Shown in pieces: positions 47,173-61,863 of a stretch of 64,000 nucleotides of DNA. Below the pieces are notes generated by a model. It was not told where the DNA came from, searched no databases, and saw only the letters and a program-made list of their open reading frames with translations. The position numbers and the translations under genes were made by a program. The DNA is from Acidovorax sp. A79 (GTDB lineage: Bacteria > Pseudomonadota > Gammaproteobacteria > Burkholderiales > Burkholderiaceae_C): positions 806,001 through 870,000 of the forward strand of contig NZ_AP028672.1 in the NCBI RefSeq assembly GCF_041154505.1, written 5' to 3'. Within the stretch, counting starts at the first letter, position 1. Every line of letters begins with the position of its first letter.

Positions 47173-48469
47173 CCGCGAACACCGAGCCCTTGCCCAGGGT
47201 GCTGGAGATGTCCAGCGTGGCGCCGTGCCGCTGCAGCACATGCTTGACGATGGCCAGTCCCAGGCCCGTGCCGCCGGTCTCGCGGGAACGGCTGCGGTCC
47301 ACGCGGTAAAAGCGCTCCGTCAGGCGTGGCAGGTGTTCCGGCGCGATGCCCGGCCCCGTGTCCTGCACCGAGAAGACGGCACGGCCGTCCTCCTTGCGCT
47401 GCCAGGCCACCGTGATCGATCCGCCCGCGGGCGTGTAGCGCACGGCGTTGCTGATGAGGTTGGACAGCGCGCTCTGCAGCTCGGCGGGCACGCCCGCGAT
47501 ATCGCCTTCGGCACGCAGGCTGTCCACGGCCGGAAAAACCATCACATGCTGGCGCGGCTGGTTCTGCGTGAGCAGGGCGGACAATGCGCGGCCCTCTTCC
47601 TCGCACCGCTGCATCAGCGCCTGCACGGGCGTCCACTCCGCCATGCCGGGCGGCGGGCTGCCCTCCAGGCGCGACAGAGTCAGCAGGTCCTGCACCACGC
47701 TTTGCATGCGCAGCGCCTGCTGCGCCATCATGCCCAGATAGCGCGCCCGCTCATCGGCATTCAGCGGCAGAGTCTGCAGGGTTTCGACGAAACCGGCCAG
47801 CACCGTCAGGGGCGTGCGGATCTCATGGGACACGTTGGCGACAAAGTCGCGCCGCATGGCCTCGGCCTGCTCCAGCGCAGTGACATCGCGCGACAGCAGC
47901 AAGGTGCGCCCGTCCCCGTAGGGGTGCAGGTGCACCGAGATGCGCACGGGCCGCGAGGGCGTGCTGAAGCGCCCTTCCAGCACCACATCGTGGGTGAAGT
48001 CCTGGGCGGCGAAGTAGGCCGTGAACTCGGGGTCGCGCACCAGGTTGCCGATCGATTGCATCACGTCGCGCTGGGCATCGAAACCAAACTGGTTGGCCGC
48101 CATCTGGTTGCACCACTCGATCCGGCCCTGCGCATCCAGCAAGACCACGCCGTTGGGCGTGGCCTGCAGCGCCGCCAGGATTTCCTGCAGCCGGTCCTGG
48201 CTGTCGCGGATCTGCGCCTGCTGCCTGCGCAGAAGGCGCCGAGCGCGGTCCGCCGCCTCGCCCCAGATGCCGCGCATGGCAGGCACTTCCGCCAGGTCGC
48301 CCGTGCGCAGCCAGCGCAGCACGCGGGCACCGCGCAGCAGGTCCCATACAAACCAGGCCCAGCCCGCCAAGGCTGCGCCCAGGGCCGCGCCCCAGGGGCC
48401 GCCCTGCCACCATCCCAGGCCACCACCCGCCATCTGCCAGAGCAGGAAATACGAAATACGCCACAGCAT
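47126..48469 (-). CDS. phoR: Phosphate regulon sensor histidine kinase PhoR
   Basis: PhoR phosphorylates PhoB when phosphate is scarce. The 447-residue protein has two N-terminal hydrophobic helices (about residues 8-45), a PAS domain (about 90-195) and a HisKA domain with His215 in VSHEIRTPLTVL. The ATP-binding domain shows NLISNAVRYTP, QDTGPGIAPEHL and GGTGLGLAIVKH. The layout is that of E. coli PhoR. It follows phoB after a 74-nt gap and closes the pst-pho cluster. Its 3' end overlaps the MATE gene on the opposite strand. Confidence 0.94.
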   Translation of the reverse strand: MLWRISYFLLWQMAGGGLGWWQGGPWGAALGAALAGWAWFVWDLLRGARVLRWLRTGDLAEVPAMRGIWGEAADRARRLLRRQQAQIRDSQDRLQEILAALQATPNGVVLLDAQGRIEWCNQMAANQFGFDAQRDVMQSIGNLVRDPEFTAYFAAQDFTHDVVLEGRFSTPSRPVRISVHLHPYGDGRTLLLSRDVTALEQAEAMRRDFVANVSHEIRTPLTVLAGFVETLQTLPLNADERARYLGMMAQQALRMQSVVQDLLTLSRLEGSPPPGMAEWTPVQALMQRCEEEGRALSALLTQNQPRQHVMVFPAVDSLRAEGDIAGVPAELQSALSNLISNAVRYTPAGGSITVAWQRKEDGRAVFSVQDTGPGIAPEHLPRLTERFYRVDRSRSRETGGTGLGLAIVKHVLQRHGATLDISSTLGKGSVFAVTFPANRLRVFSLPD

Positions 48470-48543
48470 GCGGTCAGCTCAGCCTTCTTATCAACGCCAG
48501 GGGCGCAACCCGTGCACCCCATCCAAACATCAGGCCTGCGCCA

Positions 48544-49251
48544 TCACGCCTGCAACTGCACCTGCGGCTGGGCCGTGAGCCGGTAGCCTGCCCCGCGCAC
48601 GGTTTCCACCATGACGGATGCGGCACCCAGCGCTTCACGCAGCCGCTTGACATGCACATCCACCGTGCGCTCCTCGATGAACACATGGTCGCCCCACACC
48701 TTGTCGAGCAGCTGCGAGCGGCTGTGCACGCGCTCGGCGTGTTTCATCAGGAAGTGCAGCAGCTTGAACTCGGTGGGGCCCACCTTGAGCGGCTGGCCCT
48801 GGAAGGTCACGCGGTAGGTGCCGGCATCCAGCACCAGCTCGCCGATGGTCACGCTGTCGCTGACCTGCTCGGGCGCACGGCGGCGCAGCACCGCGCGGAT
48901 GCGGGCCAGCAGCTCCTGCGTGGAAAATGGCTTGGTGATGTAGTCGTCGGCACCGGCATCCAGCCCCGCCACCTTGTCGGGCTCGTCGCCACGGGCGGTG
49001 AGCATGAGGATGGGGATGGGCTTGGTACGGCTGTCGGCACGCCATTTGCGGGCCAGCGACAGGCCGCTTTGGCCCGGCAGCATCCAGTCCAGCAGGATGA
49101 CATCGGGCAGCACGGCGTCGAGCTCGCGCTGGGCGGAGTCGCCGTCTTCCGCCCAAAAGGGCTGGAATCCGTTGTGGCGCAGATTGACGGCAATCAGCTC
49201 GGCAATCGCGGGTTCGTCCTCCACGATGAGGACGCGTGGGAGCTTTCTCAT
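48544..49251 (-). CDS. phoB: Phosphate regulon response regulator PhoB
   Basis: The 235-residue OmpR-type regulator has a receiver domain with the acidic pocket VEDEP, phospho-acceptor Asp55 in LLDWMLPG and KPFST. The winged-helix DNA-binding domain has VGPTEFKLLHFLMKH and EERTVDVHVKRLREAL. It binds Pho boxes, direct repeats of TGTCA spaced by 11 nt, and activates the phosphate-starvation regulon. Candidate boxes are found upstream of pstS, ppx and ppk1 in this window. It lies between phoU and phoR. Confidence 0.96.
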   Translation of the reverse strand: MRKLPRVLIVEDEPAIAELIAVNLRHNGFQPFWAEDGDSAQRELDAVLPDVILLDWMLPGQSGLSLARKWRADSRTKPIPILMLTARGDEPDKVAGLDAGADDYITKPFSTQELLARIRAVLRRRAPEQVSDSVTIGELVLDAGTYRVTFQGQPLKVGPTEFKLLHFLMKHAERVHSRSQLLDKVWGDHVFIEERTVDVHVKRLREALGAASVMVETVRGAGYRLTAQPQVQLQA

Positions 49252-49271
49252 AGGTGTGCCAAAGCCCTTTC

Positions 49272-49973
49272 TTACAGCACGGCCGACTCGATCTCGTCGA
49301 GGGCAGTGTGGCGCACATCCTTGCCCTTGACCAGATAGATGATCAGCTCGGCCACGTTCTTGGAATGGTCACCGATGCGCTCGATGGCCTTGGCCAGGAA
49401 CAACAGGTCCAGGCTGGGCGAGATGGTGCGCGGGTCTTCCATCATGTAGGTGATGAGCTTGCGCACGAAGCCGTCGAATTCCTTGTCGATGAGGTCGTCC
49501 TCCTTGAGGATGGCCACGGCCGCCTTGACGTCCAGCCGCGCGAACGCGTCCAGCGTCTTGCGCAGCTGGCCCGAGGCCAGCTCGGCTGCCACGCGCAGGT
49601 CGCTCGACGGCAGCGAACGCGGGGCGCCGCCTTCGATGATGGAGCGCACCATGCGCGCCATCTTGTTGGCCTCGTCGCCCATGCGCTCGAGGTTGGCCGT
49701 GGCCTTGGAGAAGGCCAGCAGCAGGCGCAAATCGCGCGCGGTGGGCTGGCGGCGGGCGATGATGGAGGAGAGCTCCTGGTCGATCTCGACCTCCATCGCA
49801 TTGATGCGGGTCTCCATCGAGGCCACGGTCTCCACGGCCTCCAAGCTGAACTGGGACAGCGCGTAGACCGCCTGCCGGATCTGCGATTCCACCAGCCCCC
49901 CCATCTCCATGACACGGGCGGACACGCTGTTGAGTTCGCTGTCGAACTGGGACGAAAGATGTTTATCGGGCAT
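49272..49973 (-). CDS. phoU: Phosphate transport system regulator PhoU
   Basis: The 233-residue all-helical protein consists of two PhoU repeats, each with the metal-binding pattern seen in SKATANLERMGDEANKMARM and AKAIERIGDHSKNVAELIIY. PhoU couples Pst transporter state to PhoR and lowers kinase output when phosphate is plentiful. Loss is usually toxic through unrestrained Pst activity. AAGGAGA lies before ATG 49973. It is encoded 11 nt after pstB. Confidence 0.96.
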   Translation of the reverse strand: MPDKHLSSQFDSELNSVSARVMEMGGLVESQIRQAVYALSQFSLEAVETVASMETRINAMEVEIDQELSSIIARRQPTARDLRLLLAFSKATANLERMGDEANKMARMVRSIIEGGAPRSLPSSDLRVAAELASGQLRKTLDAFARLDVKAAVAILKEDDLIDKEFDGFVRKLITYMMEDPRTISPSLDLLFLAKAIERIGDHSKNVAELIIYLVKGKDVRHTALDEIESAVL

Positions 49974-49984
49974 CTGCTGTCTCC

Positions 49985-50767
49985 TTAGCCGAAACGGCCG
50001 GTAATGTAGTCTTCGGTTTCCTTGCGCTCGGGCTTGAAGAAGATCTGTTCGGTGGCACCGAACTCGATCATTTCGCCGAGGTACATGTAGGCGGTGTAGT
50101 CGCTGCAGCGGGCGGCCTGCTGCATGTTGTGCGTCACGATGGCGATGGTGTAGTCGTGCTTGAGCTCGTCGATCAGCTCTTCGATCTTGGCGGTGGACAG
50201 CGGGTCCAGCGCAGAGGTGGGCTCGTCGAGCAGGAGCACCGAGGGCTTGACGGCCACGCTGCGCGCGATGCACAGGCGCTGCTGCTGGCCGCCGGACAGG
50301 GACAGGCCGCTCTGGTGCAGCTTGTCCTTCACCTCGGTCCACAGCGCGGCCTTGGACAGAGCCCATTCCACGCGGTCGTCCATCTCGCTCTTGCTCAGCG
50401 TCTCGTAGAGCTTCACGCCGAATGCGATGTTGTCGTAGATGGACATGGGAAACGGCGTGGGCTTCTGGAACACCATGCCGATGCGCGCGCGCAGCAGGTT
50501 GATGTCCTGCTTGGGGTCCAGGATGTCCTGGCCGTAGAAGTTGATCGAGCCTTCCGCACGCTGGCCCGGGTACAGGCTGTACATGCGGTTGAGCGTGCGC
50601 AGCAGGGTGGACTTGCCGCAGCCCGAAGGGCCGATGAAGGCGGTGACCTTGTGTTCCGCGATGTTGAGGCTGACATTGCGCAGCCCTTGGAACTTGCCGT
50701 AGAAGAAGCTCAGGTTGCGCAGTTCCAGCGCATTCTTGCTGGCGGTGGCGGTAGCGGTGGCGTTCAT
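49985..50767 (-). CDS. pstB: Phosphate ABC transporter ATP-binding protein PstB
   Basis: The 260-residue ATPase has Walker [15 protein letters not shown], the Q-loop [12 protein letters not shown] (typical of PstB), signature [13 protein letters not shown] and Walker [14 protein letters not shown] with the H-loop VTHNMQQ. It powers high-affinity phosphate uptake with PstA and PstC. ATG 50767 with AGGA 7 nt upstream was preferred to the TTG at 50773. An Ala/Thr-rich N-terminal tail precedes the domain. Confidence 0.96.
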
Positions 50768-50825
50768 TGTCAATTCCTGAAAATGGAGGCGGTCTGTATC
50801 TGCAATGGGGAGGGCTGGCGTGGGG

Positions 50826-51680
50826 TCAGACGCGGTTCTTCTCGCGCAGGAAGACCCGTGCCACGACGTTGAGGATCAGCACCGACAGCGTGATGAGCAA
50901 GGCACCGCCCCAGGCCAGGCGCACCCAGTTCTCATAGGGGCTCAGGGCAAACTGGAAGATCACCACCGGCAGGTTGGCCATGGGGGCGCTCATGTTGGTG
51001 CTGAAGAACTGGTTGTTGAGCGCGGTGAACAGCAGGGGCGCCGTCTCGCCGCTGATGCGGGCCACCGCCAGCAGCAGGCCGGTCATCACGCCGCTGCGCG
51101 CGGCGCGCAGGGTGACCATGGTGGACACCTTCCAGCGCGGCGCGCCGAGCGCGAAGGCCGCTTCGCGCAGGCTGCCGGGCACCAGGCGCAGCATGTTCTC
51201 GGTGGTGCGCACCACCACGGGCACGGCGATCAGCGACAGCGCCAGGCTGCCAGCCCAGCCCGAGAAGTTGCCCACCGTGGCCACGGCGATCGCGTAGACG
51301 AAGAGCCCGAGCACGATGGACGGGGCCGACAGCATGATGTCGGTCACGAAACGGGTGAGTTCGGCCGTCTTGCTCTGGTCGCCGTATTCCGCCAGGTACA
51401 CGCCCGCCAGAACACCGATCGGCGTCGATACCAGCACGGTGAAGCCCACCATCATGAGGCTGCCGACGATGGCGTTGGCCAGGCCGCCGCCCTCGGAGCC
51501 CGGTGCCGGCGTGGACTGGGTGAACATGTTCAGGTCCAGCGCGGCCAGGCCGTTGGCCAGCAGCACGCTCAGTATCCACAGCAGCACGAACAGGCCCAGC
51601 ACCATCGCGCCCAGGGACAGGGTCAGGCCGACGGCGTTGGAGCGCTGGCGCTTTTTGTAGAGTTGTTGGTTGAATTCCAT
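50826..51680 (-). CDS. pstA: Phosphate ABC transporter permease PstA
   Basis: The 284-residue inner membrane permease has six hydrophobic helices and the PstA segments [37 protein letters not shown] and [15 protein letters not shown]. The EAA-type coupling loop is [15 protein letters not shown]. It forms the channel with PstC. It is 58 nt upstream of pstB and 43 nt downstream of pstC. Confidence 0.95.
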
Positions 51681-51723
51681 GGAGCTTGTCTCAAAGGAGG
51701 TTCATGGGCAGTGCGGCGCGGGC

Positions 51724-52731
51724 TCAGAGGCCCTTGGCCTTTTCGGCGCGCAGCATCATGATCTTGGCGGCCGACAGGACCACGAACGTGATCACGAACA
51801 GCAGGAAACCGAGGGCAAACAGCGTGGAGAGGTGGAAATCCGCCGCCTCGCCAAATTCATTGGCCAGCGTGGAGGCAATGGACGTCCCTGGCGAAAACAG
51901 CGAAGTGGGCATGCGGTTGGCATTGCCGATCACGAAGGTCACCGCCATGGTCTCGCCCAGGGCGCGGCCCAGGCCCAGCATGACGCCGCCGATCACGCCC
52001 TTTTGCGTGTAGGGCAGCACGACGCGGCGCACCACCTCCCAGGTCGTGCAGCCCAGGCCGTAGGCCGACTCGCGCAGGATGGGCGGGACGATCTCGAACA
52101 CATCGCGCATCACGGCCGCCACGAAGGGCAGCACCATGAACGCCAGCACGATGCCGGCGGCCAGGATGCCGAAACCGTTGGTGCTGCCGCCAAACAGGAA
52201 GCCCACCAGCGGCATCGAGCCCAGCAGCTTCTGCACCGGCATCTGGAAGTAGTCGGCAAACAGCGGGGCGAACACGAACAGGCCGAACATGCCGTAGATG
52301 ATCGAAGGCACGGCCGCCAGCAGCTCCACCGCCGTGCCCAGCGGGCGCCGCAGCCAGACCGGGCAGGTTTCCGTGAGGAAAAGGGCGATGCCGAAAGCCA
52401 GGGGCACCGCGATCAGCAGCGCGATGCCGGCGCTCGCCAGGGTGCCGACGATGGCAATCGCGGCACCGAATTCTTCATTGATGATGTCCCATTCCACGCG
52501 CCAGATGAACTGGACTCCGAACTTGTGGAATGTCGGCCACGCGTAGACAAAAAGGGAAACGATGATGCCCAGCAGCGCCGCGAGCACCAGCAGCGACAGG
52601 CTTTGGGTCAGGCGATGGAAAAAGATGTCCTGCAGGCGCTGCCGCCTGGCAATCGATACCATGGACTCTGTGGGGGCATCCGTCGTCTTGACGGACACAG
52701 GTTGCGAACTCATGGTGGTTCCCACGCTCAT
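51724..52731 (-). CDS. pstC: Phosphate ABC transporter permease PstC
   Basis: The 335-residue permease partner of PstA has six helices, a large first periplasmic segment ([14 protein letters not shown]) and [15 protein letters not shown]. The coupling loop is [14 protein letters not shown], followed by [19 protein letters not shown]. Three in-frame ATGs (52743, 52731, 52713) are possible. 52731 was chosen for GGGAG 5 nt upstream. A 91-nt gap separates it from pstS. The higher pstS expression common in such operons may be set there, though no clear terminator is seen. Confidence 0.94.
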
Positions 52732-52822
52732 GTTGACTCCCATCTGGCTTCTGGAGGCCCCACAAACCAGCACCCATCAGCCAGACCAGCCGGCCGATGG
52801 GGGGTATTCTGGGGCAACTGGC

Positions 52823-53845
52823 TTACTTCTTGATCTGCGACCAGACCTTGGAGCGGATCTCGGCGGTCAGGCTGTCGGGCAGCGGAACATAGTCCAGTTC
52901 CGTGGCCATGCCCTTGCCGTTCTTGAACGCCCACTCGAAGAACTTCAACACTTCGGCCGACTGCGCCTTGTCGGCGGGGTCCTTGTACATCAGGATGAAA
53001 GAAGCGGTGCTGACGGGCCAGCTGTCCGCGCCCTTGGCGTTGACCATCGAGATGCCCATGCCCGGCACGCTGAACCAGTCGGCGCTGGCGGCGGCGGCCG
53101 CAAAAGTCTTGTCGTCAGGGCTCACGTACTTGCCGTCTGCATTCTGCAGTTGCAGGAAGTTCATGTTGTTCTTCTTGACGTAGGCGTATTCCACGTAGCC
53201 GACAGCGCCCTTCACGCGGGTCACGTTGGCGGCCACGCCTTCGTTGCCCTTGCCGCCCACGGACGACGCGGCAGGCCACTTCACGGCCGCGCCCTTGCCC
53301 ACGGAATCAGCCCACTCCTTGCTGACCGCCGACAGGTAGTCGGTCCAGTTGAAGGTGGTGCCCGAACCATCCGCGCGGTGTACCACGGTGATGTTCTGGT
53401 CGGGCAGGGTCTTGCCAGGATTCAGCGCGGCGAGCTTGGCATCGTTCCACTTGGCGATCTTGCCCAGGAAGATGTCCGCCAGCACGGGGCCCGTCACGCG
53501 CAGTTCGCCGGGCTTGAAGCCGTCCAGGTTGATCACGGGCACCGTGCCGCCGATGATGGCGGGAAACTGCACCATGCCGTCCTTGTCCAGGTCGGCGCCG
53601 GACACGGGCGCATCGGTGGCGCCGAAAGCCACGGTCTTGGCGCGGATCTGGCGGATGCCGCCGGAAGATCCGATGGACTGGTAGTTCAGGCCCGTGCCCG
53701 TTTCCTTCTTGTAGGCCTCGGCCCACTTGGCGTACATGGGGAACGGAAAGGTCGCGCCTGCACCGGTGATGTCCGCCGCAAAGGCACTGCCCACAGCCAT
53801 GGTGGCCAGTGCGACAGCGACGGTTTTGAGAAATGTGCGTTTCAT
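52823..53845 (-). CDS. pstS: Phosphate-binding periplasmic protein PstS
   Basis: The 340-residue protein has a cleavable signal peptide (about residues 1-23, ending VGSAFA) and the PstS-type binding pocket. GAGATFPFPMYAKW and SSGGIRQI are near the N-terminus, GATDAP is in the middle, and RADGSGTTFNWTDYL supplies the second-domain ligand loop. It captures phosphate for PstCAB. The gene opens the minus-strand cluster pstS-pstC-pstA-pstB-phoU-phoB-phoR. A Pho-box-like repeat lies 59-74 nt upstream of its start. Confidence 0.97.
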   Translation of the reverse strand: MKRTFLKTVAVALATMAVGSAFAADITGAGATFPFPMYAKWAEAYKKETGTGLNYQSIGSSGGIRQIRAKTVAFGATDAPVSGADLDKDGMVQFPAIIGGTVPVINLDGFKPGELRVTGPVLADIFLGKIAKWNDAKLAALNPGKTLPDQNITVVHRADGSGTTFNWTDYLSAVSKEWADSVGKGAAVKWPAASSVGGKGNEGVAANVTRVKGAVGYVEYAYVKKNNMNFLQLQNADGKYVSPDDKTFAAAAASADWFSVPGMGISMVNAKGADSWPVSTASFILMYKDPADKAQSAEVLKFFEWAFKNGKGMATELDYVPLPDSLTAEIRSKVWSQIKK

Positions 53846-53902: not shown

Positions 53903-53919
53903 ATGACAATTCGGTGACA
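53903..53919 (-). promoter_or_regulatory. Pho box of pstS
   Basis: On the minus strand TGTCACCGAAT is followed immediately by TGTCAT, two TGTCA half-sites with an exact 11-nt period, as PhoB requires. It lies 58-74 nt upstream of the pstS start. Confidence 0.8.
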
Positions 53920-53972
53920 CAAGGCACCCCGTCGCACAGAGCCGCCACACGGTCATCCAGCGCCGCGCGCAC

Positions 53973-53989
53973 CGTCATGAATCTGTCAC
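53973..53989 (+). promoter_or_regulatory. Pho-box-like repeat of ppx
   Basis: On the plus strand CGTCATGAATC then TGTCAC gives two half-sites with the 11-nt period and one mismatch. It is about 125 nt upstream of the ppx start and points towards ppx. Confidence 0.6.
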
Positions 53990-54112: not shown

Positions 54113-55591
54113 ATGCAGAACGGCACACGCCTCGCCGCGGTCGACCTCGGCTCCAATAGTTTTCGCCTTGAAATCGGGCGCTATGAGTTCGGACATATCC
54201 AGCGGGTGGAATACCTCAAGGAAACCGTGCGCCAGGGCAACGGCCTCGATGAAGACCGCAATCTGACGCGCGACGCCATGGAGCGTGGCTGGGCCTGCCT
54301 GGCACGATTCGGGGAGCGGCTGGCGGGGTTTCCCCGTGCCCAGGTCCGAGCCGTGGCGACCCAGACGCTGCGCGAGGCACGCAATCGGGACGAGTTCCTG
54401 TCACGCGGCAGCGAGGTGCTGGGCTATCCGATCGATGTGGTGTCGGGCCCGGAAGAAGCACGGCTGATCTACCAGGGGGTGGCCCGCCTGCTGCCGCAAT
54501 CCGACGAGCGCCGCCTGGTCGTGGACATCGGAGGGCGTTCCACGGAGCTCATCCTGGGCCAGCAGTTCACACCCTACTCCGTGGCCTCGTACCGCGTGGG
54601 CAGCGTGGCCTGGTCGCAGCGCTACTTCGCCAACGGCGAATTCACGGCCCAGGCGTTCCTGGCCGCCGAGATCGCGGCCAAGGCCGTGCTGGACGAAGCG
54701 CTGGAAACCTTCCGCCCCGAGACCTGGGACGTGTCTTACGGCTCCTCCGGCACCGCGGGCGCCGTGGGTGACATCCTGGCCGCCGCCGGCGGCCCGCAGG
54801 GCCTCATCACGCGGGACGGGCTGGGCTGGCTGCACGAGCGCCTGCTGCGCGCCCAGTCTGCCGACCGCGTGCGCCTGGAAGGGCTGAAGGAAGAGCGGCG
54901 CGCCGTCATCGGCGGGGGAATCAGCGTGCTGCGCGCCGTCTTCGACCTGCTGGACATCGAGCACATGCAGGTGGCACAGGGCGCCTTGCGCCAGGGCGCC
55001 CTCTACGACCTGCTGGACAGAGAGCAACCCGGCACCGACCTGCGTACCACCACCGTCAATGGACTCATGCAGCGGTTTGGCGTGGACATGGAGCACGCGG
55101 AACGGGTGGCGCGCACCGCGTGTGCCCTGTTCGAGCAGGCCACGCCCGGCGACAGCGAGCGAGCGTCGCGCAAGCTTGACTGGGCGGCGCGGCTGCACGA
55201 GATCGGCTGCCGCATATCCCACAGCGACTACCACCGCCACGGCGCCTACATCCTGGACAACACCGATGCCGCCGGGTTTGCCGTTCCCGAACTGCATCGC
55301 CTGGGCGTGCTGGTGCAGGGACAGCGCGGCAAGGTGCGCAAGCTCGGCGCGGACCTGCAAGATCCTGTCTTCGTGCTGCAGCTGCTGAGCCTGCGCCTGT
55401 CCGTGGCGCTGTGCCATGCGCGCCGCGATCCGGACACGGCAGGCCTCTCATTGCAAGCCGAAGGGCCGCGTTTTCTCCTGCGCGCCCGCCCCGGCTGGGC
55501 TGCGGCCTTTCCGCAGTCTGCGCACCTTCTTCGCGAGGAAGTCCAGGCCTGGCAGAAGACGCCCTGGGAACTGGTGGTTGACCTTCCCTGA
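54113..55591 (+). CDS. ppx: Exopolyphosphatase Ppx (Ppx/GppA family)
   Basis: Ppx removes terminal phosphates from polyphosphate. The 492-residue protein has the ASKHA-fold phosphate-1 motif AAVDLGSNSFRLEI (about residues 8-21), the phosphate-2 region VVDIGGRSTELILG (about 139-152) and SSGTAGAVGD-like adenosine-site sequence. A C-terminal HD-like helical domain carries LDWAARLHEIGCRISHSDYHRH. Length is typical. It is divergent from pstS with Pho-box-like repeats between, consistent with control by PhoB. GppA activity on pppGpp is an alternative. Confidence 0.92.
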   Translation: MQNGTRLAAVDLGSNSFRLEIGRYEFGHIQRVEYLKETVRQGNGLDEDRNLTRDAMERGWACLARFGERLAGFPRAQVRAVATQTLREARNRDEFLSRGSEVLGYPIDVVSGPEEARLIYQGVARLLPQSDERRLVVDIGGRSTELILGQQFTPYSVASYRVGSVAWSQRYFANGEFTAQAFLAAEIAAKAVLDEALETFRPETWDVSYGSSGTAGAVGDILAAAGGPQGLITRDGLGWLHERLLRAQSADRVRLEGLKEERRAVIGGGISVLRAVFDLLDIEHMQVAQGALRQGALYDLLDREQPGTDLRTTTVNGLMQRFGVDMEHAERVARTACALFEQATPGDSERASRKLDWAARLHEIGCRISHSDYHRHGAYILDNTDAAGFAVPELHRLGVLVQGQRGKVRKLGADLQDPVFVLQLLSLRLSVALCHARRDPDTAGLSLQAEGPRFLLRARPGWAAAFPQSAHLLREEVQAWQKTPWELVVDLP

Positions 55592-55653: not shown

Positions 55654-56211
55654 ATGACCACCACCAGCGCCACACCACCCGCCCCGTCCGCCCCCGCAGT
55701 CACAGCCACAGCGCCCGCAAAACCTGCCAAGCCCTCTGCCGCGGTGGCCGCCAAATCACCCGCCAAGGCAGCGGCACCCGCCAAGCAGGCCAGGAAAGCG
55801 GGCGCGAAGCCCGCTGCTGCCGCCCCCAAGGCGAAAGGGGCCAGCTCTAAGAAGGCTGCGGCCGCGCCCCAGCCCGCCAAAGCAAAAGCACCCACGCCGC
55901 AGGCTGCCCCGGACACCAAGGCCAAGAAGCCCAAGCTGGTGCGTGACAGCTTTACCATCCCGAAGGATGAATACGCCGTCATCGAGACACTGAAGCAGCG
56001 CTCTGCGGCGCTCGCGCAGCCCGTGAAGAAGAGCGAGCTGTTGCGCGCCGGCCTGAAGGTGCTGGCGGCGATGTCCGACAGCGCACTGCGCACCGCAGTG
56101 CAGGCCGTGCCCTCCATCAAGACGGGACGCCCCAGGGCCCAAGCGGCCGCAGCCCCCGTCGCCGCGGCCGCACCGGCCGCCAGGACCGCCGCCAAGGCCA
56201 CGCGCAAGTGA
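55654..56211 (+). CDS. Ribbon-helix-helix protein with histone H1-like Ala/Lys/Pro tail
   Basis: The 185-residue basic protein has a low-complexity Ala/Lys/Pro N-terminal half (about residues 1-92) like bacterial H1-type tails. A compact segment follows whose pattern fits a MetJ/Arc ribbon-helix-helix: strand RDSFTIP (97-103), helix KDEYAVIETLKQRSAALA (104-121) and helix KKSELLRAGLKVLAAM (126-141). A second Ala-rich basic tail closes it. It is probably a DNA-binding protein. The double palindrome upstream would suit an RHH tetramer. It converges on sixA across a long hairpin. Confidence 0.65.
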   Translation: MTTTSATPPAPSAPAVTATAPAKPAKPSAAVAAKSPAKAAAPAKQARKAGAKPAAAAPKAKGASSKKAAAAPQPAKAKAPTPQAAPDTKAKKPKLVRDSFTIPKDEYAVIETLKQRSAALAQPVKKSELLRAGLKVLAAMSDSALRTAVQAVPSIKTGRPRAQAAAAPVAAAAPAARTAAKATRK

Positions 56212-56250: not shown

Positions 56251-56715
56251 TCAAACAAACTCGGGCGACTGAACGGCGATCAGCAATGTCTGGCTTTGGT
56301 CCAGCCGCTGCCGCTGCCTCAGCCACCAGACCGAGCCCTTGCGCACGGCGCATTCCGAAGCCTGCAGTCCCATCAGTTGGGCGATGGTCTGCCCCAGCAT
56401 GGGCTGGTGGCCCACGATCAGCACCGTGCCCTTGGCGCGCGGCCACTGTGCGAGGTCCAGCAGTTCCTGCGGCGTCCCGCCCGGCAGCAGCTCGGCCCGC
56501 ATCTTGAACTTGCGCCCCAGGGCGCTGGCCGTCTGCTCGGTGCGCCGCGAGGGGCTGGCCAGCACGCGCAGGCCCTCGGGCAGCTGCCGGTCCAGCCATG
56601 CAGCCATGCGCGCTGCCTGCTTTTCGCCCCGCGGCGTCAAGGCCCGCGCCAGGTCATCACCCCCCTCAGCGGCTTCTTCCGCCTCCGCATGTCGCCACAG
56701 GATGAGATCCATCAT
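56251..56715 (-). CDS. sixA: SixA-type phosphohistidine phosphatase
   Basis: The 154-residue histidine phosphatase has the catalytic LWRHAEAEE (His9) and ASPSRRTEQTA, with the second histidine in VGHQPMLGQ. SixA enzymes remove phosphate from histidine-phosphorylated proteins such as phosphotransfer domains. The start overlaps the ppk1 stop (ATGA), so it should be co-translated with ppk1. The pairing of ppk1 and sixA is common in betaproteobacteria. It ends at the hairpin shared with the RHH-type gene. Confidence 0.88.
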   Translation of the reverse strand: MMDLILWRHAEAEEAAEGGDDLARALTPRGEKQAARMAAWLDRQLPEGLRVLASPSRRTEQTASALGRKFKMRAELLPGGTPQELLDLAQWPRAKGTVLIVGHQPMLGQTIAQLMGLQASECAVRKGSVWWLRQRQRLDQSQTLLIAVQSPEFV

Positions 56716-58898
56716 GCTGTCCCTTGGTCGAGTTGCGCCGGGGAAGGGGCCGGTCCGTAGCGGACCATCAGGGCGTCCTGGGCGCCCACTCCGTCCTCGG
56801 GGCGGGGTGCCCGGTCATAGCCTCCCTGCGCATTCAGCGTCCATGCGTCCCGGTCATCGTGCAGGTAGGCCACCAGGCACTCGTCAACGATCTGCTGTCG
56901 CAGGCGCGGGTCCGTCACGGGCCAGGCCAGTTCCACGCGCCGCATCATGTTGCGGTTCATCCAGTCGGCACTGGAAAGGTACAGGTCCTCGTCGCTGCCG
57001 CAGCGGAAGTAGAAGACCCGCGTGTGCTCGAGGAAGCGGCCGATCACAGAGCGCACCCGAATGTTGTCGGTCACCCCGGGCACCTGGGCCGCGAGCATGC
57101 AGGCCCCGCGCACGATGAGGTCGATGCGCGCTCCGCGCTGGGCGGCCAGAATCAGCGCGCGCATCAAGGCTTCATCGGTCAGGGCATTCATCTTGGCCAC
57201 GATGCGCGCATCCTCTCCCCGGCTCGCGGCCTGCCCCACCTGCTCGATCTTCTCCAGCATGCGCCGGTGCAGATGGAACGGCGCCAGCATCAGCTTGCGC
57301 AGCTTGGGCGGGCGGTTCTGGCTCGCGAGGTGGTTGAACACCCCGTCCATGTCCGCCGTGGTTTCCTCGTCGGCAGTGAGATAGCTCAGATCGGTATAGA
57401 GCCGTGCCGTGCGCACGTTGTAGTTGCCGGTGGACAGATGCCCGTACCGCCGCAGCTGGCGCCCTTCCCTGCGCGTGACCAGCAGCATCTTGGCATGTGT
57501 CTTGAGCCCCACCACGCCATACACCACCTGCGCGCCGATCGACTCCAGCGCCTCCGCCCAGTTGATGTTGGCTTCCTCGTCAAAGCGGGCCTTGAGTTCC
57601 ACGACCGCCATGACCTCCTTGCCCCGGCGCACGGCCTCGGTCAGCAGGTCCATGAGTTCGGAATCGCCACCGGTGCGGTAGATCGTCTGCTTGATGACGA
57701 GGACGTCGGGATCGTTGACGGCCTCGCGCAGGAAGGCGAGCAGTCCGTCGAAGCTCTCGAACGGCTGGTGGATGAGCACGTCGCGCTGGCGCAGCTGCTC
57801 CATGATGGACACTCCGGCCTGCAATTGCCGTGGCCAGGCGGAATTCCAGGTCGGAAACAGCAGGGCGGGTGCATCCACCAGGTCCACCAGCTGGGTCAGG
57901 CGCACCAGGTTCACGGGCCCGGGTACCCGGTACAAGGCGGCGGGGGGCAAGGCAAACTGCGCCAGCAAAAAGTCGGACAGAAATTGCGAACATCCCGCGG
58001 ACACTTCCAGCCGGACGGCCTGCCCATAGTGCCTGTGCTGCAAGCCCTGGCGCAGGGCTGTCCGCAGATTGCGCACATCCTCCTCATCCAGCGCGAGGTC
58101 GGAATGGCGCGTCACCCGGAATTGCGAGAACTCCGTCACCTCGCGCCCCGGAAAGAGCTCGTCCAAGTGTGCCCGCACGATGCTGGAAAGGCTCACGAAA
58201 AGCGCTTCCGAGGGTGCCACGCGGGCAGGCATGCGAATCAGCCTGGGCAGGGCCCTGGGAACCTTGACGATGGCGATCTCGTTCTCTCGCCCGAATGCAT
58301 CGTGCCCCTTCAGGCGCACGATGAAGTTCAGGGACTTGTTGGCCACCTGGGGAAAGGGGTGCGCGGGGTCCAGCCCCACCGGGATCAGCAGCGGCCGCAC
58401 CTCGCCCACGAAATACTCGTGGACCCAGCGCTTCTGGGCGGGCGAACGCTCCCCATGCCCCACGATCCGGATGCCATGGGCGGCAAACGCAGGCACCAGG
58501 GACTCGTTGTACAGCGTGTACTGCCGGTCCACCAGCCCGTGCACCTTGGCGGCCACGGCTTCGAAGGATGCCGTCGAATAAAGGCCCTGGGTCTCGCCTT
58601 TCTGGGCCGCGGTGATGTGCGGCGCGGCACGCACTTCAAAAAACTCGTCCAGGTTGGACGACACGATGCACAGGTAGCGCAGCCGCTCCAGCAGCGGCAC
58701 ATCCGTTCTCACGGCCCAGTCGAACACCCGTTCGTTGAACGCGAGGATGCTGTGGTCCCTGTCCAGGAACATGTGGGGCGGCGCCGCAGTGGGCGCGGCT
58801 GCCGGTGCGTGGCCCACGCCGCCGTCGCGTGGCGTCGGCGTGGCATCGGGACTGTCACACGACAGGGCAACAGCGTCATCGGGGGGCAAGGGCAACAT
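56712..58898 (-). CDS. ppk1: Polyphosphate kinase 1
   Basis: Ppk1 makes polyphosphate from ATP. The 728-residue protein has a variable N-terminal tail (about 40 residues, Ala/Pro-rich), then FLDRDHSILAFNERV, which begins the N domain. The catalytic domains contain the phosphorylated histidine in GLKTHAKMLLVTRREG, YGHLSTGNYN and SADWMNRNMMRRVE. All main Ppk1 features are present. Three TGTCA half-sites lie 51-79 nt upstream, inside the agt-like gene. It follows that gene on the same strand and is overlapped by sixA. Confidence 0.96.
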   Translation of the reverse strand: MLPLPPDDAVALSCDSPDATPTPRDGGVGHAPAAAPTAAPPHMFLDRDHSILAFNERVFDWAVRTDVPLLERLRYLCIVSSNLDEFFEVRAAPHITAAQKGETQGLYSTASFEAVAAKVHGLVDRQYTLYNESLVPAFAAHGIRIVGHGERSPAQKRWVHEYFVGEVRPLLIPVGLDPAHPFPQVANKSLNFIVRLKGHDAFGRENEIAIVKVPRALPRLIRMPARVAPSEALFVSLSSIVRAHLDELFPGREVTEFSQFRVTRHSDLALDEEDVRNLRTALRQGLQHRHYGQAVRLEVSAGCSQFLSDFLLAQFALPPAALYRVPGPVNLVRLTQLVDLVDAPALLFPTWNSAWPRQLQAGVSIMEQLRQRDVLIHQPFESFDGLLAFLREAVNDPDVLVIKQTIYRTGGDSELMDLLTEAVRRGKEVMAVVELKARFDEEANINWAEALESIGAQVVYGVVGLKTHAKMLLVTRREGRQLRRYGHLSTGNYNVRTARLYTDLSYLTADEETTADMDGVFNHLASQNRPPKLRKLMLAPFHLHRRMLEKIEQVGQAASRGEDARIVAKMNALTDEALMRALILAAQRGARIDLIVRGACMLAAQVPGVTDNIRVRSVIGRFLEHTRVFYFRCGSDEDLYLSSADWMNRNMMRRVELAWPVTDPRLRQQIVDECLVAYLHDDRDAWTLNAQGGYDRAPRPEDGVGAQDALMVRYGPAPSPAQLDQGTA

Positions 58899-58937
58899 GG
58901 ATACGCAAGCGCGACGAGTGCAGGATGGCTGCAGTAT

Positions 58938-60026
58938 TTAACGCCCAGATGACAAAGATGTGACAGGCTCCGTGACAGTCACACGCGCCACGCCCTGTGT
59001 CCGGGCAGGAACCAGGTACTGCTCGAACAGCCGCGCGGCGTGGGCCCATGTGAAATCGAGCGCACGCGCCCGGGCGTCGGAGCGGGCAATCGCCAGCGCC
59101 TCCTGGCTTGCAGTCAGCAAATCGTCATGCAGCACGCCCCCCCGTGCCGGCTGGCCAGGATGTGCACCCAGCACTTCCATCGGCCCGTCCACGGGGAAAG
59201 CGGCCACCGGCGTTCCGCAGGCCATGGCCTCGAGCATGACCAGCCCGAAGGTTTCAGAACGGCTGGGAAACACAAAAACATCCGCCGCCGCATACACCTG
59301 GGCCAGTGCCGGGCGGTCCAGGATGCCCAGCCAGCGGACCTGCGGGTACCTGGCCTTCAGGCGCGCCTCCAGCGGGCCGACACCACACACCACCTTGGAG
59401 CCGGGCATGTCCAGCCGGAGGAAGGCCTCGATGTTCTTTTCGTACGAGATCCGTCCCACGTACAAGGCCACGGGATGGGCCAGGGCCCCCATGAGCGGGC
59501 TGGGGGTGGTGGCGCCGTGGAACGCGAAAGCCTGCGTGTCAACGCCATGGGTCCACAGGCGCAGGTTGCGAAATCCCCGGTGCTCCAGCATCTGCAGGAC
59601 GCCGTGCGTCGGCACCATCACGCCCGATGACGGGCGATGGAAATGACGGAACAGCGCGTACCCCCATCCAAGCGGCACCCGCAAGGCCGCGTTCAGTATT
59701 TCCGGGAAACGGGTATGGAATGCCGTGGTGAATGCCAGGCCCTTGCGCAGGCAGTAGCGGCGCCCCGCCCAGCCCAGCGGTCCTTCGGTGGCCAGGTGGA
59801 TGGCGTCGGGCTCCATCGCGTCCAGCATCCCTGCCACGCGCTGCGCGGGCCGCACGGCCAGATCGATCCCTGCATAGCCAGGGCACGGGCGCGTTGTGAA
59901 CTGGCCGGGATGCAGCACCTGGACCGCGTGCCCGGCGGCTTCCAGCTCCCGCACCAGCTCCAGCAGCGTGGTGACGACCCCGTTGACCTGGGGAAGCCAG
60001 GCATCCGTCAGCAAGGCGATTTTCAT
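58938..60026 (-). CDS. GT4 glycosyltransferase, likely diacylglycerol glycosyltransferase (Agt-like)
   Basis: The 362-residue protein is a GT-B fold, family 4 enzyme. It has the N-terminal TDAWLPQVNGVVTTL (about residues 7-21), the middle THGVDT and VGRISYEKNIEAFL, and the donor-binding FPSRSETFGLVMLEAMACG (about 273-291). Related enzymes (Agt, SqdX) put glucose, galactose or glucuronic acid on diacylglycerol. It is translationally coupled (ATGA) to the PlcP-like gene, which would supply diacylglycerol. Its last codons contain three TGTCA boxes facing ppk1. The role in lipid remodelling is inferred from context. Confidence 0.8.
   Translation of the reverse strand: MKIALLTDAWLPQVNGVVTTLLELVRELEAAGHAVQVLHPGQFTTRPCPGYAGIDLAVRPAQRVAGMLDAMEPDAIHLATEGPLGWAGRRYCLRKGLAFTTAFHTRFPEILNAALRVPLGWGYALFRHFHRPSSGVMVPTHGVLQMLEHRGFRNLRLWTHGVDTQAFAFHGATTPSPLMGALAHPVALYVGRISYEKNIEAFLRLDMPGSKVVCGVGPLEARLKARYPQVRWLGILDRPALAQVYAAADVFVFPSRSETFGLVMLEAMACGTPVAAFPVDGPMEVLGAHPGQPARGGVLHDDLLTASQEALAIARSDARARALDFTWAHAARLFEQYLVPARTQGVARVTVTEPVTSLSSGR
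58950..58977 (-). promoter_or_regulatory. Triple Pho-box half-sites upstream of ppk1, inside the agt-like gene
   Basis: On the minus strand TGTCACGGAGCC, TGTCACATCTT and TGTCAT give three TGTCA half-sites spaced 12 and 11 nt. The second and third form a regular Pho box. They encode part of the C-terminal VTVTEPVTSLSS of the agt-like protein and lie 51-79 nt before the ppk1 start. Confidence 0.75.
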
Positions 60027-60892
60027 AGGGCAACGGCGGCCTCGGTCCGCGATGTGTCGGCGAAGGGAGAAGCGGGCCACTGGAGCAGTTCCAGCCGGCC
60101 GTCCAGGTGTTCGACCAGCGCGGTGTGGCTTTCCACCCAGTCGCCGTCATTGCAATACAGGGTTCCGCCGATCTCCCGCATCTCCGCGCGGTGGATATGG
60201 CCGCACACCACGCCGTCATGTCCCCTGCGGCGCGCCTCGGCGGCCACGGCCACTTCAAAGTCGGTCACGTAATTGAGCGCCTTCTTGACCTTGCCCTTCA
60301 GGTAGGCCGACAGCGACCAGTAGGGCAGCCCCATGCGGGCGCGCAAGGTGTTGAGGTGCCGGTTGAGCCGCAGCGTGAACTCATACAGGTTGTCCCCCAG
60401 GTAGGCCAGCCACTTGGCGCACTGGATCACTCCGTCAAAGTGGTCTCCGTGCGTGACCCACAGGCTGCGGCCGTCCGCCGTGGTGTGCACCGCCTCGGCC
60501 AGCACTTCGATGCCGCCGAACGAGTGGCCGACAAAGGCGCGTGCAAACTCGTCATGGTTGCCAGGCACGAAGACCACCCGGCATCCCTTGCGCGCGCGCC
60601 GCAGGAGCTTTTGCACGACATCGTTGTGGGCCTGGGGCCAGAACCACTTGCGGCGCAGCTGCCAGCCGTCGACGATGTCGCCCACGAGGTAGAGGTGGTC
60701 GCTGGGGTGGTGCTTGAGAAAGTCCAGCAGCGCGACAGCCTGGCACCCCGGGGTGCCCAGGTGCAAATCCGAAATGAAGACCGCGCGGTACCGGCGATGA
60801 CCCGCCGCGAAGGCATGTGCGTCGTCGGCCATGTCCTCGTGGCCCACGGACGGTTCCATCCAGGGGCCCAGGGCATCGAACGCGGTGCGCAT
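60023..60892 (-). CDS. Metallophosphoesterase of the PlcP/LpxH-like (COG2908) group
   Basis: The 289-residue binuclear-metal enzyme has FISDLHLG (about residue 40), GDIVDGWQL, GNHDEFARA, VTHGDHFDG and GHIHRAEM in family order. LpxH cleaves UDP-diacylglucosamine in lipid A synthesis. PlcP, a relative with WPQAHNDVVQKLLRRARKG-type sequence, cleaves phospholipids to diacylglycerol during phosphate starvation. The sequence and its place between an OlsB-like gene and a GT4 gene favour PlcP. The annotation UDP-2,3-diacylglucosamine diphosphatase remains possible. The start touches the upstream stop (TGATG), and the stop overlaps the agt-like start. Confidence 0.8.
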   Translation of the reverse strand: MRTAFDALGPWMEPSVGHEDMADDAHAFAAGHRRYRAVFISDLHLGTPGCQAVALLDFLKHHPSDHLYLVGDIVDGWQLRRKWFWPQAHNDVVQKLLRRARKGCRVVFVPGNHDEFARAFVGHSFGGIEVLAEAVHTTADGRSLWVTHGDHFDGVIQCAKWLAYLGDNLYEFTLRLNRHLNTLRARMGLPYWSLSAYLKGKVKKALNYVTDFEVAVAAEARRRGHDGVVCGHIHRAEMREIGGTLYCNDGDWVESHTALVEHLDGRLELLQWPASPFADTSRTEAAVAL

Positions 60893-61728
60893 CAGGCCCC
60901 CAGGAAATGCTTGCGGTAGCGGGGGTGCAGGTCCGCCAGGCGCATCAGCATCGGCAGGTCCGCGGTGTTGAAGTCCGGGTCCCAGGCTGGAGCGCCCAGC
61001 ACGCGCGCGCCCAAGCGCAGGTAGCCCTTGATGAGCGCCGGGGGCTCCACCGTGATCGAGCCGTCCAGCTGCTCGACGGGCAGCGGCAGCCGGGGAAGCA
61101 CGTGGTATTCGATGGGGGCCAAATGTGTCTTGCGCACCTGCTGCCAGATGCTCGCGGCCGCGTCGCCGCTGACGACGCCGTTGTGCAGCATGGGGATGCT
61201 GGCGCAGCCGATCATCGTGTCGAGCTGGTTGCGCACCATGAAGTCCGCCAGCGCGCTCCACAACGCCATGATCACGCCGCCGTGGCGGTGGTCGGGGTGC
61301 ACGCAGCTGCGGCCCAGCTCCACCATGCGCGGGCGCAGGGAGCGCAGCCGCGTCAGGTCGAACTCGGTGTCGCTGTAGGTGCCGCCGACGCGCCGGGCCT
61401 GTGCGGGAGTGAGCACGCGGTAAGTCCCAATGACTTGCTGGCTCTGGGCGTCGCGCACCAGCAGGTGCTCGCAATAGTCGTCGAACAGGTCCACGTCGTG
61501 GCCGGGGATGGGGGTCGTCAATCGAGCGCCCATCTCCGCCGCGAACACATCGAACCGCAACCGCTGCGCCTGGCGCACCTCATCTTCATGCCGCGCCCAT
61601 GCCACCTCGATGGCCCCCCGCGCCGCCACCGGCTGCAGGGCGCCGGGCATGGCAGCCGTGCCGCGAAGCGGCCGCTGGGGAACGATCTCGGTGGACAGGG
61701 GCGGCGTCAAGGTGGGCAGCTCATTCAT
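60892..61728 (-). CDS. OlsB-like GNAT acyltransferase (ornithine lipid synthesis)
   Basis: The 278-residue protein belongs to the hemolysin-like GNAT group (Acetyltransf_5). It has AQRLRFDVFAAEMGARL, the core RMVELGRSCVHPDHRHGGVI (about residues 148-167) and MIGCASIPM. OlsB N-acylates ornithine with a 3-hydroxy fatty acid, giving lyso-ornithine lipid. A second acyltransferase (OlsA) must be encoded elsewhere. ATG 61728 gives the normal start. The gene is first of an apparent operon with the PlcP-like, GT4, ppk1 and sixA genes. A degenerate TGTCA-N6-TGACA site is about 120 nt upstream. Confidence 0.78.
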   Translation of the reverse strand: MNELPTLTPPLSTEIVPQRPLRGTAAMPGALQPVAARGAIEVAWARHEDEVRQAQRLRFDVFAAEMGARLTTPIPGHDVDLFDDYCEHLLVRDAQSQQVIGTYRVLTPAQARRVGGTYSDTEFDLTRLRSLRPRMVELGRSCVHPDHRHGGVIMALWSALADFMVRNQLDTMIGCASIPMLHNGVVSGDAAASIWQQVRKTHLAPIEYHVLPRLPLPVEQLDGSITVEPPALIKGYLRLGARVLGAPAWDPDFNTADLPMLMRLADLHPRYRKHFLGA

Positions 61729-61845: not shown

Positions 61846-61863
61846 ATGTCAATTCCATGACAG
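61846..61863. promoter_or_regulatory. TGTCA-N6-TGACA element upstream of the olsB-like gene
   Basis: On the minus strand CTGTCATGGAATTGACAT resembles a Pho box with one changed base in the second half-site. It is equally a perfect inverted repeat. It lies about 120-135 nt before the olsB-like start and 68 nt before the divergent GGDEF gene. Which gene it serves is unclear. Confidence 0.35.

What the first reader, a model, noticed from the sequence alone, without database searches (positions are those of the whole stretch)
56712..61728. Candidate phosphate-starvation lipid-remodelling operon fused to polyphosphate synthesis
Five minus-strand genes lie in tight order. They are an OlsB-like N-acyltransferase, a PlcP/LpxH-like phosphoesterase, a GT4 glycosyltransferase, ppk1 and sixA, with stop/start overlaps at three junctions. 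Known families: OlsB makes phosphorus-free ornithine lipids; PlcP frees phosphate from phospholipids and leaves diacylglycerol; Agt-type GT4 enzymes glycosylate diacylglycerol; Ppk1 stores phosphate. Together they would swap phospholipids for phosphorus-free lipids and bank the released phosphate. Joining this directly to ppk1-sixA and to the pst-pho cluster about 3 kb away is a compact arrangement that I do not recall described for Comamonadaceae.
Basis: partly seen in the sequence, partly recalled or inferred. Interest (0 to 1): 0.82.

Follow-up and report, generated by a model that had tools for sequence, protein, structure and literature searches.

The report
Phosphate-starvation lipid and polyphosphate gene cluster
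In an Acidovorax-like bacterium, genes predicted to replace membrane phospholipids with phosphorus-free lipids sit directly before the gene that makes polyphosphate, behind predicted phosphate-starvation switches, and similar neighbourhoods recur in many related bacteria; the parts are known, the combination was not found in the papers searched, and none of it has been tested in the laboratory.

Summary
The five genes exist as described: olsB-like, plcP, GT4, ppk1, sixA, with three stop/start overlaps. The phosphoesterase is a PlcP, not LpxH: 49-52% identical to presumed orthologues of two characterised PlcPs, 23% to LpxH, and the genome has a separate LpxH above its cut-off. The GT4 is 51% identical to the presumed P. 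aeruginosa Agt1. The acyltransferase is OlsB-like (below curated cut-offs); an OlsA-like gene lies elsewhere. The best reading is two adjacent PhoB-controlled units (olsB-plcP-agt; ppk1-sixA), not one fused operon. In 120 genomes of the family, ppk1 directly follows one of the three lipid genes in 57 of the 110 that have it; the full order occurs in 21; partners change often. ppk2 also has predicted boxes. Boxes are weaker in unnamed, more distant loci. Known parts in a combination I did not find in print: a new variant. Routing of lipid phosphate into polyphosphate, lipid products and PhoB binding are untested.

The parts
60892..61728 (-). olsB-like N-acyltransferase (Acetyltransf_5), first gene of the lipid unit
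   Evidence: Pfam PF13444 4.9e-36; best NCBIfam models OlsB 158.8/150.7 bits, below cut-offs; 47-51% to Streptomyces, Kitasatospora and Nonomuraea relatives, the Kitasatospora one overlapping a lysophospholipid acyltransferase gene; only Acetyltransf_5 gene found in the genome
60023..60892 (-). plcP, intracellular phospholipase C-type phosphoesterase
   Evidence: 49% (alignment) to the presumed S. meliloti PlcP, 52% to the presumed PA3219, 23% to LpxH; split from LpxH 100/100
58938..60026 (-). agt-like GT4, predicted diacylglycerol glycosyltransferase
   Evidence: 51% (tblastn) or 48% (alignment) to the GT next to plcP in P. aeruginosa, presumed Agt1
56712..58898 (-). ppk1, polyphosphate kinase 1
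   Evidence: TIGR03705 859.6 bits, cut-off 465.85
56251..56715 (-). sixA-like phosphohistidine phosphatase, overlaps the ppk1 stop by 4 nt
   Evidence: TIGR00249 70.6 bits, cut-off 74.5
61846..61863 (-). predicted Pho box before olsB (1 mismatch)
   Evidence: upstream scores in relatives
58949..58966 (-). predicted Pho box before ppk1 (0 mismatches), inside the 3' end of gt4
   Evidence: boxes before ppk1 also where gt4 is absent
53903..53920 (-). predicted Pho box before pstS (1 mismatch)
53972..53989 (+). predicted Pho box before ppx (1 mismatch)
54113..55591 (+). ppx/gppA exopolyphosphatase
   Evidence: Pfam Ppx-GppA 1.8e-72
55654..56211 (+). Lys/Ala/Pro-rich protein with a conserved domain, convergent with sixA
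   Evidence: no Pfam or NCBIfam match at 0.001; domain in 52 of 140 loci; opposite strand and within 1 kb of sixA in 40 of the 45 named loci that have it; model pLDDT about 93-95 over residues 111-150
47126..53845 (-). pstSCAB-phoU-phoB-phoR cluster
   Evidence: each of the seven proteins over at least one NCBIfam cut-off of that name

Best explanation
Two adjacent, PhoB-controlled transcription units lie beside the pst-pho cluster. Low phosphate activates PhoR-PhoB, which binds Pho boxes before olsB and before ppk1 (boxes shown; binding inferred). Unit 1 (olsB-plcP-agt) renovates the membrane. PlcP cuts phospholipid to diacylglycerol plus a phosphorylated head group. The Agt-like GT4 glucosylates the diacylglycerol, most likely to monoglucosyldiacylglycerol. 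OlsB N-acylates ornithine or another amino acid, and the OlsA-like enzyme encoded elsewhere adds the second acyl chain to give a phosphorus-free aminolipid. Unit 2 (ppk1-sixA), with ppx and ppk2, which also have predicted Pho boxes, sets up polyphosphate turnover, most likely so that phosphate regained by Pst and other uptake is stored when supply returns. The two units share a regulator and a neighbourhood; direct channelling of lipid phosphate into polyphosphate is not shown.
For: Pho boxes: 4 of the 12 genome-wide sites with at most 1 mismatch lie in 7.96 kb here; the reversed-pattern control found 3 in the genome. Over the 80 named loci, best upstream score of at least 12 of 14: olsB 35 of 79, ppk1 36 of 64, ppx 23 of 46, pstS 30 of 30; plcP 0 of 57, gt4 0 of 44, sixA 2 of 62. 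Random 280-mers from the same loci: 5.1% of 1500, or 1.6% of 3000 taken away from these genes. A ppk1 box of at least 12 is present when the upstream gene is olsB (8 of 13), plcP (4 of 6), gt4 (22 of 41) or none of these (2 of 4). PlcP clade and separate LpxH. Agt-like GT4. An OlsA-like gene whose best NCBIfam models are OlsA (128.7 and 116 bits, cut-offs 300) ahead of the 1-acylglycerol-3-phosphate acyltransferase model (93.2 bits). A lipid gene directly before ppk1 in 57 of 110 genomes with ppk1. PPK2 above cut-off behind two predicted boxes. Precedents: P. aeruginosa PlcP-Agt with Pho box (PMC8528852, passages); Acinetobacter with PhoR-dependent olsB and a distant olsA not induced by low phosphate (PMC11828411, passages); putative Pho boxes before olsB in Burkholderia sensu lato (PMC7814305, passages).
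Against: The boxes are not universal: in 20 unnamed family loci only 4 of 20 ppk1, 3 of 7 olsB and 3 of 13 plcP score at least 12, and in 40 order loci 0 of 6 olsB, 1 of 2 ppk1 and 12 of 40 plcP do; 28 of 64 named ppk1 and 44 of 79 named olsB score below 12, and only 7 of 79 olsB reach 13. The gene at 55654-56211 scores at least 12 in 11 of 45 named loci although it lies outside both proposed units. The named loci were fetched by OlsB similarity and are related, so counts are not independent. OlsB and OlsA candidates fall below NCBIfam cut-offs, SixA just below. With 3 control matches, some of the 12 genome sites may be chance: one lies by a branched-chain amino-acid SBP gene (L126), and the genes by L134 were not scanned. 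No expression, binding or lipid data.
Confidence: 0.75

Rival explanations
1. One reading: one five-gene operon that directly routes phosphate released from phospholipids into polyphosphate.
For: Overlapping starts and a 39-nt gt4-ppk1 gap allow read-through; ppk1 follows a lipid gene in 57 of 110 genomes with ppk1; in two other families of the order ppk1 lies before plcP-gt4 on the same strand (L143, L181). 28 of 64 named ppk1 have no box of at least 12.
Against: In the window ppk1 has its own perfect-match box, and boxes occur before ppk1 in loci without gt4; gene order is a mosaic; 53 of 110 genomes have ppk1 without such a neighbour within 600 nt; making polyphosphate during starvation costs ATP and phosphate (established knowledge).
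Confidence: 0.2
2. The phosphoesterase is an LpxH paralogue in lipid A synthesis, so the cluster is not lipid renovation.
For: Where a source names listed relatives it is mostly as LpxH or UDP-2,3-diacylglucosamine diphosphatase; weak LpxH profile matches of 39-48 bits.
Against: Separate LpxH above cut-off; 23% identity to LpxH against 49-57% to PlcP-type proteins of S. meliloti, Sphingomonas, P. aeruginosa and Methylobacterium; motifs GNHDE and GHIH instead of GNRDF and GHTHRP; tree split 100/100.
Confidence: 0.02
3. The acyltransferase makes an aminolipid other than ornithine lipid, or several, as in Acinetobacter (lysine and ornithine lipids).
For: Below OlsB equivalog cut-offs; only 33.5% to the S. 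meliloti relative; Acinetobacter makes both lipids (PMC11828411, passages).
Against: OlsB models are far ahead of GlsB (158.8 against 21.6 bits); 47-51% to Streptomyces, Kitasatospora and Nonomuraea relatives, and Streptomyces SCO0921 is reported as an ornithine N-acyltransferase (PMC7937720, passages), though orthology was not tested.
Confidence: 0.3
4. Clustering reflects only shared PhoB control beside pst-pho; lipid and polyphosphate genes have no functional link.
For: Separate boxes; partners of ppk1 interchange; in 40 loci from other families of the order ppk1 is within the fetched stretch in only 4.
Against: The repeated presence of different lipid genes directly before ppk1 (gt4 32, olsB 17, plcP 8) is more specific than mere location in a regulon.
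Confidence: 0.45

Closest known systems
plcP-agt lipid renovation cluster (type 2 of Sebastian et al., PMC4796936, passages and section 13; P. aeruginosa PA3219-PA3218, PMC8528852, passages; Methylosinus, PMC9239053, passages)
   Same: Adjacent plcP and GT4 agt, Pho box, protein identity about 50% to the P. aeruginosa pair
   Different: olsB ahead in the same unit, Pho box before olsB instead of before plcP, ppk1-sixA directly behind; I saw none of these in the parts read
olsBA ornithine lipid genes (S. meliloti, Streptomyces SCO0921-SCO0920, Acinetobacter, Burkholderia; PMC7814305, PMC7937720, PMC11828411, passages)
   Same: OlsB superfamily, Pho box before olsB, an OlsA-like enzyme in the genome
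   Different: olsA-like gene not adjacent (as in Acinetobacter); olsB placed with plcP-agt; scores below OlsB cut-offs
PHO-dependent PlcP, OlsA and OlsB of Pseudomonas putida BIRD-1 (PMC5082522, passages)
   Same: PlcP and OlsAB absent in the PHO mutant during phosphate depletion
   Different: olsAB, plcP and ppk have distant locus numbers there; Ppk is listed with small values (1.34 and 0.89), which I read as changes in wild type and mutant
ppk1-ppx polyphosphate loci (recalled)
   Same: ppk1 and ppx near each other
   Different: Lipid genes directly upstream of ppk1 and a Pho box before ppk1

Membership tests
PlcP | Groups with characterised PlcP and apart from LpxH | tested here: met
   references are presumed orthologues placed by neighbourhood, locus tags recalled
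PlcP | A separate LpxH exists in the genome | tested here: met
   196.8 bits, cut-off 190.35
PlcP | Phospholipase C activity on membrane phospholipids | not testable with these tools
   Needs an assay
Agt | GT4 family and close similarity to the GT next to plcP | tested here: met
Agt | Glycosylates diacylglycerol | not testable with these tools
   Needs an assay
OlsB (NCBIfam equivalogs) | Score above the curated cut-off | tested here: not met
   158.8 of 350 and 150.7 of 320; called OlsB-like only
OlsB | An OlsA partner encoded in the genome | tested here: inconclusive
   OlsA models are best for L118 but below cut-off
LpxH | Score above the curated cut-off | tested here: not met
   about 39 bits of 190.35, 47.9 of 134
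PPK1 | Score above the curated cut-off | tested here: met
   859.6 of 465.85
SixA | Score above the curated cut-off | tested here: not met
   70.6 of 74.5; called SixA-like
Pho regulon | Pho box upstream, recurring in relatives | tested here: met
   weaker in unnamed loci
Pho regulon | PhoB binding and phosphate-dependent expression | not testable with these tools
   Needs an experiment

The most novel reading that the evidence does not exclude
The locus is a phosphorus-reallocation module. Lipid renovation and polyphosphate synthesis are functionally coupled: phosphate freed from membrane lipids, with phosphate taken up on recovery, is stored as polyphosphate. A histone-H1-like protein encoded between sixA and ppx may organise the granules.
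Probability: 0.2. Interest if true: 0.72.

Novelty: new variant of a known kind. Interest (0 to 1): 0.5.

Why it matters
Comamonadaceae are common in freshwater, soil and activated sludge (general knowledge). If these genes work as predicted, many of them have a PhoB-controlled programme that lowers the phosphorus cost of membranes while priming phosphate storage. It gives a compact, deletable locus in which to ask whether membrane phospholipid serves as a phosphate reserve for polyphosphate, which bears on phosphorus cycling and biological phosphorus removal.

Tried and rejected
LpxH identity of the phosphoesterase: rejected. Sequence search of solved structures with the PlcP and the OlsB-like protein gave no match at 0.001; the GT4 gave 53, all general GT4-type or glycogen-synthase-like chains or their fusions. 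A fold search with the model of the small + strand protein gave one match, E 7.4. Promoter prediction beyond Pho boxes was not attempted. Searches for prior description: 14 of 14 papers listed; 20 of 1,440; 15 of 310; 7 of 7; 15 of 17; none found; 15 of 587. In these listings (titles, abstract starts) and in the passages opened I saw no description of olsB-plcP-agt next to ppk1, nor of ornithine lipids in Comamonadaceae; the library lacks most subscription papers and the long lists were seen only in part. One Caenimonas description tabulates unidentified aminolipids in some species and none in the new one (PMC9628874, passages); a Rhodoferax description lists no aminolipid in the passages seen (PMC7074706); neither is decisive.

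Rows dropped: for the synteny count I pasted all listed PlcP and GT4 places but left out nine secondary or fragment OlsB places and two fragment ppk1 places; each of those genomes kept another row. Matches with an internal stop were counted. In one search, 79 of 80 named loci gave an olsB upstream region and 64 a ppk1 one; the others lacked the gene, ran off the contig or were at 45% identity or less. For the order survey I fetched 40 of the 114 PlcP-positive genomes outside the family. One search used 80 ppk1 sequences with at least 1200 nt upstream room, at least 550 residues, over 600 bits and at most one stop; its loci were chosen for plcP or olsB, so its count of 'none' says nothing.
Full report
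What is there. The window lies in a 5.87-Mb genome; its OlsB-like protein is identical to that of Acidovorax sp. sif1233. Five minus-strand genes run olsB-like, plcP, gt4, ppk1, sixA with overlaps at three junctions and a 39-nt gap before ppk1. Next come a small + strand gene, ppx (+), and the pstSCAB-phoU-phoBR cluster.

The phosphoesterase. Against the LpxH profile the window protein scores 39.2 bits, and another gene at C1:5039494-5040138 scores 196.8, over the cut-off of 190.35. In an alignment it is 49% identical to an S. meliloti protein beside an AHL synthase and a LuxR regulator (recalled as the neighbourhood of SMc00171, PlcP), 52% to the P. aeruginosa protein between azoR3 and cyaB (recalled as PA3219), and 23% to E. 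coli LpxH and to its own genome's LpxH. The tree separates PlcP and LpxH at 100/100 (14 rows, long LpxH branches). PlcP motifs GNHDE and GHIH replace LpxH GNRDF and GHTHRP. Database names calling relatives LpxH are therefore probably wrong.

The glycosyltransferase. Among plasmid records its highest-identity relatives are the GTs next to plcP in P. aeruginosa (51%). The presumed orthologue, Agt1, makes monoglucosyldiacylglycerol (PMC8528852, passages). No NCBIfam model is matched over its cut-off.

The acyltransferase. OlsB models are best but below cut-off. Outside its close kin, plasmid-record relatives at 47-51% occur in a Variovorax plasmid, Streptomyces, Kitasatospora and Nonomuraea; other actinobacteria are at 33-40%. 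The Kitasatospora gene overlaps a lysophospholipid acyltransferase gene, and the same pairing is seen in Methylomagnum (43%). Streptomyces SCO0921 gives lyso-ornithine lipid (PMC7937720, passages), but I did not test orthology. The S. meliloti relative is 33.5% identical. The genome has six PF01553 matches in five proteins. One, L118, is 37% identical to the Kitasatospora acyltransferase and has OlsA as best NCBIfam models, below cut-off, while L119 looks like PlsC. Acinetobacter also keeps olsA away from olsB, without induction by low phosphate (PMC11828411, passages).

Regulation. In the window the pattern CTGTCAYNNNNYTGTCAY with up to 3 mismatches gives 16 matches against 17.07 expected, so as a whole it is uninformative; but the only four with 0 or 1 mismatch lie before olsB, ppk1, pstS and ppx. 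Genome-wide there are 12 such sites against 3 for the reversed pattern. Treating sites as independent, four in this 7.96-kb span has probability 1.7e-9 for a given span, 1.2e-6 over all spans. Other sites lie before or beside ppk2 (two boxes), phnC and a phytase-like gene, each over a curated cut-off, and an SBP whose best models are 2-aminoethylphosphonate SBPs, below cut-off. One (L126) lies by a branched-chain amino-acid SBP; a Pit-type gene at L130 is about 0.7 kb from its site; genes by L134 were not scanned. Across named relatives, scores of at least 12 recur before olsB and ppk1 and are nearly absent before plcP, gt4 and sixA; the gene at 55654-56211 also reaches 12 in 11 of 45. Boxes before ppk1 are found where gt4 is missing. 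In unnamed loci they are weaker: ppk1 4 of 20, olsB 3 of 7, plcP 3 of 13 in the family; plcP 12 of 40, olsB 0 of 6, ppk1 1 of 2, gt4 0 of 25 in the order.

Distribution. In 120 genomes of the family (119 genera), olsB is found in 96, plcP in 87, gt4 in 47 and ppk1 in 110 at the chosen limits. The full order occurs in 21 (22 with wider gaps). The gene directly before ppk1 is gt4 in 32, olsB in 17, plcP in 8 and none of these in 53 of 110; some of the 53 may be contig ends. Of the 80 named loci, fetched by OlsB similarity, 40 hold all five genes. On a quick ppk1 tree of 80 sequences the partner state needs 18 changes, at least 10 for gt4 forced by supported branches, so genes come and go. In 40 loci from other families of the order, gt4 lies directly after plcP in 26 (24 at 40% identity or more), olsB is within the fetched stretch in 6, and ppk1 in 4, two of them with ppk1 first. 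On a Mitsuaria plasmid plcP directly precedes ppk1. In these samples the tie to ppk1 is mainly a feature of this family.

Mechanism. Shown: gene identities to family level, order, recurring boxes. Inferred: PhoB binding, transcription units, lipid products, timing of polyphosphate use. A plausible logic is that starvation lowers the phosphorus quota through lipid exchange while enzymes for storage are made ready. Whether lipid phosphate itself enters polyphosphate is open.

Novelty. plcP-agt, olsB and their Pho boxes are each known in print. I saw no description of their union with ppk1 in the listings, within an open-access library and partly capped lists. I rate it a new variant of a known kind, interest 0.5.

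Noticed in passing
window 55654-56211 (+): Lys/Ala/Pro-rich protein with a conserved domain of about 60 residues (three predicted helices, pLDDT about 93-95 over residues 111-150; tails low), no family match, beside sixA; the domain was found in 52 of 140 loci. In composition it resembles AlgP, which spaces polyphosphate granules in P. aeruginosa (PMC9239181, passages). A granule role is a guess.
   Followed up: partly
own genome C1:4651759-4651803 (L125, L133): Two predicted Pho boxes between a PPK2 gene (380 bits, cut-off 301.8) and a divergent CorA-type transporter gene, so ppk1, ppx and ppk2 all have predicted boxes.
   Followed up: partly
relatives of window 60023-60892: PlcP-type proteins are often annotated as LpxH / UDP-2,3-diacylglucosamine diphosphatase, including the S. 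meliloti presumed PlcP; probably a widespread misannotation.
   Followed up: partly
L140 (P. aeruginosa plasmid record): A plasmid record carries plcP-agt in what looks like the chromosomal gene order from azoR3 to cyaB (order recalled); it may be chromosomal DNA filed as a plasmid or an acquired copy.
   Followed up: no
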